Positions 30,467 through 33,630 of a stretch of DNA of 39,411 nt are shown here, in pieces. Origin of the DNA: a virus; the IMG/VR virus record IMGVR_UViG_3300018080_000064, positions 1-39,411 of that record. The stretch is one strand, 5' to 3'. The translations under genes were made by a program, and so were the position numbers. The notes under the pieces are model-generated. The model saw only the letters and a program-made list of their open reading frames with translations, did no database searches and was not told the DNA's origin. The stretch's first letter is position 1. Every line of letters begins with the position of its first letter.

Positions 30467-32056
30467 CTATCTCCTCTCAATCCTCACCTCAGCCGCCTCG
30501 ACCTCTTCGCCGTCGATCCACAGCAAAACACGCTGCTCATGTGTTGGTGGCTCAGAGCTGAACCAGCGGATCGCATCATCGCCTTGGCCCTCGAAGTGTG
30601 CCGAGTAGTCACCGATCCCGTTAAAATACACTGACCACAGATTCGGTAAATGTCGCCACCCCAGCCAGGTGTTTCTGAAATCACAGCCGGTCGGGTTGAG
30701 TATCGTCAGGTTGTAGACATTCGATCCGCCGTAGACTATATCCCAGCCCTGAACCAGCACCAAACACGGCTCGCGGGTCCAGGTGTTGTTCCGAATAATC
30801 AATGAGCGCAGGTCGTGCGGTAGCTTCTGCCCTGATCCCCCATCATAAAGCTCATAGATGCAGATGAACCGATCTTGGGTCACACAGATATTATTCTCGA
30901 ACGTGAGCATCCCCGCCCCAATTTCATCGATATAAAACACCATGCACCCGTGTAATACCTGCAATCGATCAGCAGCCCCGCCGACATATCTAGCCTCGAA
31001 CGTGTTGTGATGTACCCAATTCTTTTGATCTGCCCGGCAACTTATCTTGAAGGCACAGCCGATGCCATTTGCTAACTGATCAGCCCAGACACCAATCGAG
31101 AGAATATAGTTGCCATAGACCTCTGTGTTCGTACAACGCTCCAGGGCCAGCCCGTGAGCGTTGATTCGGTCGTGCGTTGCCCAAGTCGGCGGACACATTA
31201 CACTGACAGTGTTATCGAAGAATCGTATCCCATCGGCCCCTTCTCCAATGTGAACGCCCATGCCGCGTATCGAATCCACTAGATTGTCGTGAACGTCTAG
31301 CTTATCACCGTGTATCCCGAGGCCGTAGCAGTTGACCACCACGCCTTGACTGCTGATAAGGTTATGCGCCACTTCCCCGCGTTCAATTTCACCTTGCCGA
31401 GTGACCCGAATTCCCCACTGTGCAGCATTCACAATCTCATTATCGGTGACAGACAGCGTTCCCTTGTTCAACTGAATGTCTATCGCCGCCCGGCCTTGGT
31501 GTCGGTTGCTGACTACTTTGGTGTAGTCTCGGACCGTGCAATCCCGCACGATTAGGTTAGTGTTCTGCTGGCAGAGAATTGCGTGAGTATCGTCGCCGTA
31601 GATTGCTACCTCAATGCCCTCGACAATCACATCATCGGCATAGGCGACAATGACAGCCGCACACGAATCGCCGCCAGCAATAACTTGTAATATCTGGCCG
31701 TTTCGGATTGTCGGTCTATCGTTCCGATTCCATTTAGTGATATCAGACAGCCGCCATCGCTTCGCGCTGTGTTGGTAATGAGGCGGCACAGCGACACCAT
31801 ATGAATACGGCTGGCCTGAAGTACCGTAGACGACCACGCGCCCACCAAGATCAAGCGTGACGCCTGGAGCGGAGACCACCAGCGCCGTTCCCGGTGTGCT
31901 GATATTCTCAGTCAGGGTGTAAGTTAAATCTGCCTGATCTAGATAATACGGCCCATCTCCAACCAGAGCTTGATCGATCTCGATAGCAATGCAGTCGCCC
32001 ACGAACCACAGTGCGAACAGTGCCAGCGTGAGTAGAATCATTTTGATCGGTTTCAT
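30467..32056 (-). CDS. Secreted right-handed beta-helix protein, 529 aa
   Basis: Begins with a signal peptide (MKPIKMILLTLALFALWFVG; no lipobox). The body shows the repeating short-turn pattern of parallel beta-helix proteins: VTLDLGGRVVV, DVIVEGIEVAIYGDD, NLIVRDCTVRDY, LSVTDNEIVNAAQWGIRV, LDVHDNLVDSIRGMGVHI, IRFFDNTVSV. Pectate-lyase-like and NosD-like folds share it. It could degrade or bind polysaccharide. Unlike typical tailspikes it lies among early/middle genes, right behind RtcB (2-base gap, AAGGGG site), and is predicted to be exported. Function unknown. Confidence 0.75.
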   Translation of the reverse strand: MKPIKMILLTLALFALWFVGDCIAIEIDQALVGDGPYYLDQADLTYTLTENISTPGTALVVSAPGVTLDLGGRVVVYGTSGQPYSYGVAVPPHYQHSAKRWRLSDITKWNRNDRPTIRNGQILQVIAGGDSCAAVIVAYADDVIVEGIEVAIYGDDTHAILCQQNTNLIVRDCTVRDYTKVVSNRHQGRAAIDIQLNKGTLSVTDNEIVNAAQWGIRVTRQGEIERGEVAHNLISSQGVVVNCYGLGIHGDKLDVHDNLVDSIRGMGVHIGEGADGIRFFDNTVSVMCPPTWATHDRINAHGLALERCTNTEVYGNYILSIGVWADQLANGIGCAFKISCRADQKNWVHHNTFEARYVGGAADRLQVLHGCMVFYIDEIGAGMLTFENNICVTQDRFICIYELYDGGSGQKLPHDLRSLIIRNNTWTREPCLVLVQGWDIVYGGSNVYNLTILNPTGCDFRNTWLGWRHLPNLWSVYFNGIGDYSAHFEGQGDDAIRWFSSEPPTHEQRVLLWIDGEEVEAAEVRIERR

Positions 32057-32058
32057 GT

Positions 32059-33231
32059 TTACCCCTTTACTACGCCCAGCGGCCTGAGCTTTGACACGAT
32101 TTCAACTAGATCGCTTTGTGATTCCATAACAGCGTCGATATCTTTGTACGCCTGCGGAGCTTCCCCGAGATCGGGTTTTCCATTTCTTGCCTTGCCCCAT
32201 CGACCGAATACGATCCCATCCATTGCCTTATCGCACTCGTCAACCGTTAGTGTTTTGGATGCTCCCGACCGACTCATTACCCGCCCAGCGCCGTGGCTTG
32301 ATGAACAGAATGATTCTCGATTTCCTAGCCCTTTAACGATATAAGAAGAGGTTCCCATCGATCCTGGTATAACACCCATCAGCCCCTTATTGGCTTTTAC
32401 TGCACCCTTTCTGTGCACCCACACGTTCTTGCCATAATGATTTTCGAGAGCTGCAAAGTTATGATGCACGTTGATATCAAGCTCATCAACAAACTCGCAC
32501 TCCAGTAGTGATCTAATGCACGACTTGGTTCTGTCCATCATTAGCATTCTGTTTTGATATGCAAATCTAAGAGCATAGTTCATTGCTTCGATGTATTCCT
32601 GACCCTCTTTTGAATCAACCGGCAGGAATGCTAGGTCTTTGTTGGGCACATCAGAATGCCACTTGTCGCACAGAGCAATGGCCTTCTCGTTGTATTCCTT
32701 GGCAACGCGATAACCGAAGTTCCTGCTCCCACTATGAACCATTACGGCGATCTCACCTTTATCGACAGCCTGTAATTCAATAAAATGATTACCGCCACCC
32801 AGCGTGCCGAGTTGTCGTCTCGCACTTTCTACATTGCTTTGTATTATCTCGATCTCTGGGGCATTATCAAACCCAGCCCACTCTTGAGCTTCTTCGTGGT
32901 GTTTGAAACCAACCGGCACAAGCGCCCTTACATAACCGAGGATTTCTTTTATCTTGTCGGGTGTGATCATGTTGGCCGGGAAATCAGTCTCCGCATACGA
33001 CATGCCGCACCCGATATCGACACCGACCGCATTGGGTATAACAGCGTCCTTACAGGCAATCACTCCACCTATCGGCATGCCATATCCACAATGACAATCA
33101 GGCATCACAGCGATATGCTTGAACAAACATGGGTGCCTTGATAAATCTTCTATTTGTGTCATCGCACTTTCTTCTATTTCATCACACCATGACATCGCAT
33201 TGATTCTGCTGCTTAGTTCTAATTGTTTCAT
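32059..33231 (-). CDS. rtcB: RtcB-type RNA ligase, 390 aa
   Basis: Complete RtcB. Metal and guanylate site motifs are present: VMPDCHCGYGMPIGG (42-56), GVDIGCGM (70-77), LGGGNHFIEL (144-153), VMVHSGSRNFG (163-173), INVHHNFA (253-260), IPGSMGTSSYIVKG and HGAGRVMSR (313-321), whose histidine is the expected site of guanylylation. RtcB joins a 3'-phosphate or 2',3'-cyclic phosphate to a 5'-OH, as in tRNA splicing and repair. The start is the ATG at 33231 (AAAGGG upstream). A longer frame would run into the tRNA-like gene and is rejected. Confidence 0.93.
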   Translation of the reverse strand: MKQLELSSRINAMSWCDEIEESAMTQIEDLSRHPCLFKHIAVMPDCHCGYGMPIGGVIACKDAVIPNAVGVDIGCGMSYAETDFPANMITPDKIKEILGYVRALVPVGFKHHEEAQEWAGFDNAPEIEIIQSNVESARRQLGTLGGGNHFIELQAVDKGEIAVMVHSGSRNFGYRVAKEYNEKAIALCDKWHSDVPNKDLAFLPVDSKEGQEYIEAMNYALRFAYQNRMLMMDRTKSCIRSLLECEFVDELDINVHHNFAALENHYGKNVWVHRKGAVKANKGLMGVIPGSMGTSSYIVKGLGNRESFCSSSHGAGRVMSRSGASKTLTVDECDKAMDGIVFGRWGKARNGKPDLGEAPQAYKDIDAVMESQSDLVEIVSKLRPLGVVKG

Positions 33232-33245
33232 GATTTTCCCTTTCT

Positions 33246-33335
33246 TGCCCCGCGAAGGACTCGAACCCCCGATCGCTTGATTAAAGGATGACCCGAGAGC
33301 CATCTGTCAAGCGCTCTGCCGTTGAGCTACGGAGC
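33246..33335 (-). tRNA. tRNA(Lys)-like gene with interrupted anticodon loop, 90 nt
   Basis: Cloverleaf on the minus strand: acceptor GCTCCGT/GCGGGGC (7 bp, two G-U) plus discriminator A; D-arm GCTC-AACGGCA-GAGC; T-arm GGGGG-TTCGAGT-CCTTC; variable loop CGATC. The anticodon stem CTTGA/TCAAG is perfect, but its loop has 26 nt instead of 7. The loop ends TTTAA and starts C, as in tRNA(Lys) UUU (C-U-UUU-AA), with about 19-20 nt (AGATGGCTCTCGGGTCATCC) inserted at position 33. The insert can pair GATGG with TCATC. The acceptor/D-arm junction is one base short and CCA is not encoded. It may be an intron-like element, a decoy or a pseudo-tRNA. Confidence 0.7.
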
Positions 33336-33354: not shown

Positions 33355-33630
33355 TTATACCTCAATGCTGCTGGCTCGTTCGACTGTTTCCTTCAGTGCT
33401 GCGGCGTGTTTGGTGAAGCTGTCTAGCTCAACGAAAATATTTTTGAAGTTGTAATCACTGCTCAGAATGTTGATCTTTTGGATAGTCGACGCATAGTCAA
33501 TGGCTGGTATCTTCTGGCCGATCGTGATTTCTTTCGGTGGTGTACCGTACACAGCACCAAGGATATCTTTTACTTCTGATTTCGTCGCCTCGATCAAGAA
33601 TCCATTTTCCGTTTCTGCTACTACCTTCAT
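33355..33630 (-). CDS. Hypothetical protein, 91 aa
   Basis: Begins MKVVAETENGFLIEATKSEV, a compact beta-alpha start, then KEITIGQKIPAIDYASTIQK and a helical end. AAGGAG precedes the ATG by 7 bases. It is the gene immediately upstream of the tRNA-like sequence (19-base gap), in the same direction. No family recognised. AT-rich TATATAAT just before it (about 33645-33655) could serve as a -10, but no good -35 is seen. Confidence 0.65.
   Translation of the reverse strand: MKVVAETENGFLIEATKSEVKDILGAVYGTPPKEITIGQKIPAIDYASTIQKINILSSDYNFKNIFVELDSFTKHAAALKETVERASSIEV

What the first reader, a model, noticed from the sequence alone, without database searches (positions are those of the whole stretch)
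33231..33335. tRNA(Lys)-like gene with a ~19-20 nt insert in the anticodon loop directly upstream of RtcB
The sequence shows a cloverleaf with intact acceptor, D, T and variable elements. The anticodon stem CTTGA/TCAAG closes a 26-nt loop, C + AGATGGCTCTCGGGTCATCC + TTTAA. Removing about 19 nt restores a 7-nt loop with UUU at the anticodon. RtcB, known to ligate tRNA halves after splicing or anticodon-loop breakage, starts 14 bases further on. Inference: the phage may carry a minimal split or intron-containing tRNA with its own ligase, or a decoy whose loop attracts host anticodon nucleases with RtcB as repair enzyme. The insert hairpin is not a perfect bulge-helix-bulge and position 33 would not be U after simple excision, so a degenerate pseudo-tRNA remains possible.
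Basis: partly seen in the sequence, partly recalled or inferred. Interest (0 to 1): 0.88.

Follow-up and report, generated by a model that had tools for sequence, protein, structure and literature searches.

The report
Phage tRNA mimic with extra hairpin
A bacterial virus carries, just in front of an RNA-repair gene, a tRNA-shaped RNA whose reading loop is interrupted by a small hairpin; similar non-reading tRNA look-alikes turn up in many phages, including the laboratory phage phiC31, and they are probably decoys or other non-coding RNAs rather than tRNAs waiting to be spliced.

Summary
At 33335-33246 (minus strand) lies a tRNA cloverleaf (Rfam tRNA, 33.9 bits). Its 26-nt anticodon loop contains a 7-bp hairpin, and it ends 14 nt before an intact rtcB. 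It is the window's only tRNA.

The RtcB-spliced intron reading is not supported. There is no bulge-helix-bulge, and no excision restores a 7-nt loop with U33. None of 49 other virus records sampled for insert-bearing tRNAs holds rtcB. Only 2 of 35 comparable hairpin inserts would leave a 7-nt loop.

tRNA bodies with such inserts are widespread in phages but were not found in 796 bacterial genomes. One family sits unannotated in Streptomyces phage phiC31 and relatives, where compensatory changes preserve both the anticodon stem and the inserted hairpin.

The best reading is a non-decoding tRNA mimic co-transcribed with rtcB, perhaps a decoy for tRNA-cleaving enzymes. Decay remains a serious rival: this copy has no known relatives, a low score and a missing core nucleotide. 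D-loop inserts are also common in phage tRNAs. The closest known arrangement is the YrlA-rtcBA operon, but YrlA and TROVE tests were negative.

The parts
33246..33335 (-). tRNA-like gene (cloverleaf, 90 nt, no encoded CCA, discriminator A)
   Evidence: Rfam RF00005 33.9 bits; ARAGORN -i; cloverleaf within 0.5 kcal/mol of MFE
33286..33305 (-). 20-nt insert AGATGGCTCTCGGGTCATCC in the anticodon loop, between C32 and U34, replacing U33
   Evidence: sequence; comparison with Lys(UUU) loop CUUUUAA
33287..33304 (-). inserted hairpin GATGGCT-CTCG-GGTCATC (7 bp, CUCG loop)
   Evidence: RNAfold; p about 0.027 against shuffles
33276..33311 (-). anticodon arm: stem CTTGA/TCAAG (33311-33307 / 33280-33276) closing the 26-nt loop
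   Evidence: sequence
32059..33231 (-). rtcB, RNA ligase, 390 aa; SD-like GAAAGGG directly after the tRNA-like gene
   Evidence: PF01139 E 2.9e-113, phrog_1075; metal-binding and nucleophile motifs kept in alignment with Pyrococcus RtcB 1uc2
33355..33630 (-). upstream ORF, 91 aa, no family; ends 19 nt before the tRNA-like gene (same transcription unit inferred)
30467..32056 (-). downstream ORF, 529 aa, beta-helix (not TROVE/Ro60)
   Evidence: PF13229; TROVE absent

Best explanation
The element is a tRNA mimic: a tRNA-derived cloverleaf whose anticodon loop is interrupted by a 7-bp hairpin, so that it cannot decode. It lies inside a minus-strand operon between a small ORF and rtcB. Most likely it is transcribed with rtcB and cut out of the mRNA by the host's tRNA-processing enzymes, which recognise the acceptor/T/D body, leaving a stable non-coding RNA. 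It would then act on proteins that bind tRNA, most plausibly as a decoy or competitor for tRNA-cleaving enzymes, while RtcB independently reseals tRNAs with 2',3'-cyclic-phosphate ends. Shown: the cloverleaf, the insert, the adjacency, an RtcB with intact motifs, and a widespread phage class of the same anatomy that is under structural selection in the phiC31 family. Inferred: transcription, processing, and the decoy function.
For: The D arm, T arm, anticodon stem and acceptor all still pair, and the insert itself forms a hairpin. It is absent from 796 bacterial genomes searched with the same pattern; the one hit there is class II-like. With the window's exact arm sequences, 2 of 14 viral tRNAs carry inserts. 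Insert loops are more structured than shuffles: 13 of 48 at p <= 0.05. In the phiC31 family, 8 base pairs show compensatory change, including two in the anticodon stem and two in the inserted hairpin (one of these also with unpaired cells), with 98.6% of cells paired. In phiBT1 the tRNA body is kept while the arm is replaced by a stem with a 9-nt loop. A tRNA-like RNA in an operon with rtcB has a precedent in Salmonella YrlA, proposed as a possible competitive inhibitor of an anticodon nuclease (PMC7790460). Phage tRNA(Lys) counteracting a tRNA-cleaving defence is documented (PMC11555353, PMC12409363).
Against: No relative of this copy was found, so selection on it cannot be tested. It scores lower (33.9 bits) than most peers (about 44-60 bits) and lacks one core nucleotide. 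rtcB is not a partner of the class (0 of 49). Phage tRNAs carry D-loop inserts as well, so the anticodon loop is not a special target, which weakens a decoy logic aimed at anticodon nucleases. No expression data exist.
Confidence: 0.42

Rival explanations
1. Decaying tRNA gene: a former phage tRNA(Lys) that acquired an insertion in the anticodon loop and is drifting, with no present function.
For: Low score, a missing nucleotide between acceptor and D stem, four G-U pairs in acceptor and T stems, no relatives carrying it. rtcB relatives at 57-58% identity lack any tRNA.
Against: All four arms still pair, and the insert is itself a 7-bp hairpin (p about 0.027). Phage genomes shed useless DNA quickly (general knowledge). 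The same anatomy is under structural selection elsewhere.
Confidence: 0.27
2. Intron-containing or split tRNA: the insert is cut out by a nuclease and RtcB joins the halves into a working tRNA(Lys).
For: Adjacency of rtcB; removal of about 19 nt leaves a 7-nt loop with UUU at the anticodon; ARAGORN models it as an intron.
Against: No bulge-helix-bulge (asymmetric CA / CUUUAA internal loop). U33 is not restored. Nearest RtcB relatives are in bacteria, mostly Bacillota, and bacteria lack tRNA-splicing endonuclease (general knowledge). rtcB absent in 49 other records sampled for insert-bearing tRNAs. Inserts in the wider set would mostly not leave 7-nt loops (2 of 35).
Confidence: 0.11
3. Cis-acting element: the tRNA-like structure serves mainly as an RNase P/RNase Z processing site that separates rtcB from upstream genes or couples rtcB expression to tRNA-nuclease activity.
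For: The element fills the whole gap between the 91-aa ORF and the rtcB ribosome-binding site (19 and 14 nt on either side). No promoter or terminator lies between.
Against: An ordinary tRNA would do the same without an insert. No conserved link of tRNA-like genes to rtcB upstream regions in other phages or contigs.
Confidence: 0.12
4. Bacterial Y RNA (YrlA-like) that works with a Ro60 ortholog and RtcB.
For: YrlA RNAs mimic tRNA and lie beside rtcB in rsr-yrlBA-rtcBA operons (PMC7790460).
Against: No RF02553 match in the window (none over the cut-off in 49 other records) and no TROVE protein in any of the 50; the 529-aa neighbour is a beta-helix protein.
Confidence: 0.04

Closest known systems
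YrlA (bacterial Y RNA) in rsr-yrlBA-rtcBA RNA repair operons
   Same: Non-decoding tRNA-like RNA encoded in an operon with rtcB; suggested as a possible competitive inhibitor of an anticodon nuclease (PMC7790460)
   Different: No Ro60/TROVE protein, no RF02553 match; here the element is a complete linear cloverleaf with a loop insert
Phage tRNAs that evade tRNA-cleaving defences (T5 tRNA-Lys against PARIS; phage tRNA-Tyr against retron-Eco7; phage tRNA-Lys against PrrC; PMC11555353, PMC12409363)
   Same: Phage-borne tRNA, Lys-like anticodon arm; the insert sits in the loop region that Lys-specific anticodon nucleases such as PrrC cut (general knowledge)
   Different: Those are working tRNAs, in T5 with point substitutions; this one has no usable 7-nt anticodon loop
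phiC31 tRNA-like RNA (NC_001978 31424-31509) and relatives
   Same: tRNA body with a hairpin inserted in the anticodon loop, in a siphovirus genome of about 41 kb
   Different: No sequence homology beyond tRNA arms; no rtcB next to it; intact core nucleotides
Archaeal/eukaryotic tRNA introns (bulge-helix-bulge, RtcB-ligated)
   Same: Short insert in the anticodon loop; RtcB present
   Different: Wrong position, no BHB, no U33 after excision, probably bacterial host

Membership tests
tRNA (RF00005) | Cloverleaf matching the tRNA covariance model | tested here: met
   33.9 bits, gathering 29
tRNA (RF00005) | 7-nt anticodon loop with U33, able to decode | tested here: not met
   26-nt loop; U33 replaced by the insert
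tRNA (RF00005) | Two nucleotides (8, 9) between a 7-bp acceptor stem and the D stem | tested here: not met
   one A only if the acceptor has 7 bp; Rfam alignment leaves one position empty
BHB intron-containing tRNA | bulge-helix-bulge at exon-intron junctions | tested here: not met
   2-nt / 6-nt asymmetric internal loop
BHB intron-containing tRNA | excision restores a canonical anticodon loop | tested here: not met
   position 33 would be A or C; wider set 2 of 35 leave 7 nt
BHB intron-containing tRNA | tRNA-splicing endonuclease available | not testable with these tools
   host unknown; RtcB relatives mostly in Bacillota
Group I/II intron tRNA | catalytic intron core | tested here: not met
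   20-nt insert; no Rfam intron match
YrlA Y RNA | match to RF02553 | tested here: not met
   no match in the window at E <= 1
YrlA Y RNA | Ro60/TROVE protein encoded nearby | tested here: not met
   none
YrlA Y RNA | operon with rtcB | tested here: met
   rtcB 14 nt downstream
Phage tRNA resistant to anticodon nucleases | functional isoacceptor with altered cleavage site | tested here: not met
   not a decoding loop; cleavage not testable here
Phage non-decoding tRNA mimics with remodelled anticodon arm (this report) | intact tRNA body, structured insert in anticodon arm, phage location | tested here: met
   acceptor/D junction one nt short
Phage non-decoding tRNA mimics with remodelled anticodon arm (this report) | compensatory change in insert and stems among relatives | not testable with these tools
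   no relatives of the window copy; met for the phiC31 family
attP derived from a tRNA gene | integrase next to the tRNA-like gene | tested here: not met
   immediate neighbours of the window element carry no integrase family; no tyrosine or serine integrase among the families listed for neighbours of other insert tRNAs (one rve and two phrog transposase matches only; lists cut at 25 families)

The most novel reading that the evidence does not exclude
Phages, including phiC31, encode a broad class of non-decoding tRNA mimics whose bodies engage tRNA-binding host or defence proteins while the anticodon arm is rebuilt as a structured module; in this window the mimic is paired with an RNA ligase, forming a decoy-plus-repair cassette against anticodon nucleases.
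Probability: 0.22. Interest if true: 0.85.

Novelty: new variant of a known kind. Interest (0 to 1): 0.55.

Why it matters
tRNA genes in phages are usually explained by codon usage or by replacing tRNAs cut by defence systems. Here tRNA bodies recur with anticodon arms that cannot decode, in many unrelated phages and in the model phage phiC31, where structure is kept by compensatory changes. That is evidence for a tRNA-shaped non-coding RNA in phages, and it can be tested in a laboratory system. Annotation largely misses or mislabels these genes: one relative (Lilbooboo) is annotated as tRNA-Gly, while phiC31 and the other relatives listed carry no annotation there.

Tried and rejected
- Exact insert in IMG/VR: no hits. 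Lys-like arm with insert in IMG/VR: no hits.
- Relatives of the phage: one near-identical contig (L013) that does not reach the tRNA region. TerL relatives are distant. No relatives from the phrog_1499 neighbour in IMG/VR.
- attP hypothesis: no integrase found beside insert tRNAs.
- Ro60/Y RNA hypothesis: negative.
- rtcB as partner of the class: negative. rtcB neighbourhoods in 8 isolate phages show no insert tRNA.
- Ochre suppressor reading (ARAGORN 'Stop(tta)'): requires dropping position 26 and excising 21 nt. The phage uses TAA stops in 15 of 40 ORFs, so suppression would be costly.

Full report
Observation. The window is an IMG/VR virus record of 39,411 bases with siphovirus genes: tape measure, portal, large terminase. 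On the minus strand at 33335-33246 lies a tRNA-like gene. Rfam's tRNA model matches it at 33.9 bits over the whole model; no other tRNA is in the window. ARAGORN misses it by default and finds it when introns are allowed. Reading 5' to 3', the arms are: acceptor GCTCCGT/GCGGGGC, D arm GCTC-AACGGCA-GAGC, anticodon stem CTTGA/TCAAG, T arm GGGGG-TTCGAGT-CCTTC, discriminator A, no CCA. The anticodon loop is 26 nt. In it GATGGCT-CTCG-GGTCATC forms a 7-bp hairpin that beats 97% of shuffles. The cloverleaf is 0.5 kcal/mol above the best predicted fold. The element fills the gap between a 91-aa ORF (19 nt upstream) and rtcB (14 nt downstream, with its ribosome-binding site directly after the tRNA-like gene).

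What is unusual or damaged. The 3' half of the loop (UUUAA) and its flanks match Lys(UUU): all 7 fetched tRNAs with GACTTTTAATC are Lys(UUU). U33 is replaced by the insert. Only one nucleotide instead of two joins acceptor and D stem, and four of the acceptor and T-stem pairs are G-U. The score is below those of most comparable phage genes, which lie at about 44-60 bits. These points keep decay in play.

rtcB. The 390-aa product is a full RtcB (PF01139, E 2.9e-113) and keeps the cysteine and histidine motifs in alignment with Pyrococcus RtcB. RtcB occurs in 657 of 50,697 phage records. The nearest relatives are virus contigs at 57-58% identity and genomes of bacteria, the closest of them Bacillota at 45-54%; none has a tRNA directly upstream except one Pseudomonadales locus that lies in a tRNA array. 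The host is therefore probably a bacterium, where no tRNA-splicing endonuclease is known (general knowledge).

A wider class. I classified them by pairing. Some are class II tRNAs or tandem genes. Seventy-five elements keep at least 6 of 7 acceptor pairs and are not class II by my test, though a few are probably imperfect class II. Many have a proper anticodon stem closing a loop of 18-50 nt. The same pattern in 796 bacterial genomes gave one hit, which is class II-like. With the window's own arm sequences, 2 of 14 viral tRNAs carried inserts. Insert loops are more structured than shuffles in 13 of 48 cases at p <= 0.05. Often the insert tRNA is the only tRNA of its record.

Structural selection in phiC31 relatives. 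One of these families is the Streptomyces phage phiC31 group: 14 records, unannotated in phiC31 between gp13 and gp14, annotated tRNA-Gly in Lilbooboo. Across nine sequences 98.6% of cells pair, and 8 pairs have changes on both sides, against 4.6 in column shuffles and 0-2 in slid controls. Two of these are in the anticodon stem and two in the inserted hairpin, one of the latter (40:53) also having unpaired cells. The hairpins end in GNRA or UUCG tetraloops in most members. In phiBT1 the body is kept but the arm is a plain stem with a 9-nt loop. A body conserved under an arm that cannot decode is what a tRNA mimic would show. This is shown for the phiC31 family, not for the window copy, for which no relative was found.

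Against splicing. rtcB is in none of 49 other virus records sampled for insert-bearing tRNAs; expectation at the background rate is below one, so this excludes a required partner in the same record, not a mild enrichment. Hairpin excision would leave a 7-nt loop in 2 of 35 cases. In the window there is no bulge-helix-bulge, and position 33 would be A or C.

Controls that limit the claim. Structured inserts in phage tRNAs are thus not confined to the anticodon loop. Virus records may be fragments, and both scans were truncated, so frequencies are not estimates for the collection.

Mechanism. I favour a non-decoding tRNA mimic, co-transcribed with rtcB and released by tRNA processing, acting on tRNA-binding proteins, most plausibly as a competitor for tRNA-cleaving enzymes, with RtcB resealing cut tRNAs. 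The closest precedent is YrlA in rsr-yrlBA-rtcBA operons, for which a competitor role was suggested (PMC7790460). The window fails the YrlA and TROVE tests, so it is not filed there. Phage tRNAs that defeat tRNA-cleaving defences are known but are working tRNAs (PMC11555353, PMC12409363). The open-access searches I ran found no description of phage tRNAs with anticodon-loop hairpin inserts. Subscription papers, including the phiC31 genome paper, could not be read, so the phiC31 element may have been noted before.

Noticed in passing
Loci (from L193), e.g. L213, L216, L222: Phage tRNAs with structured D-loop inserts and normal anticodon arms; one family (GTTGAGG/GTTGTGG acceptor, D-loop such as GTAACTCTTCGGGGTTTAGGT, several with a GAA anticodon) recurs in many contigs.
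   Followed up: partly
L022, L025, L028, L050, L058, L061, L088, L113, L120-L123, L125, L129: Phage tRNAs with anticodon UAU (loop CUUAUAC) and a long class II variable arm, an unexpected combination for an Ile-type anticodon.
   Followed up: no
L057, L103, L162, L066: Insert tRNAs whose loop segment (GGAGCG, AAGGG) can pair with a segment downstream of the anticodon stem (CGCTC, CCCTT), suggesting a conserved pseudoknot in place of the anticodon arm.
   Followed up: no
L149 6287-6438: Just downstream of a Pseudomonadales rtcB, inside a 15-tRNA array, a tRNA-like gene with a large insert holding two hairpins with AGGA loops that resemble CsrA-binding sites.
   Followed up: no
L183-L191 (phiC31 group), alignment A2 columns 34-39: A palindromic hexamer in the insert (CCCGGG) changes to TCCGGA in three relatives, staying self-complementary: possible loop-loop dimer contact.
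   Followed up: no
MK977712 (Corynebacterium phage Lederberg) 42413-44518: rtcB matches in two pieces over 2.1 kb, unlike its sisters, suggesting an insertion or intein.
   Followed up: no
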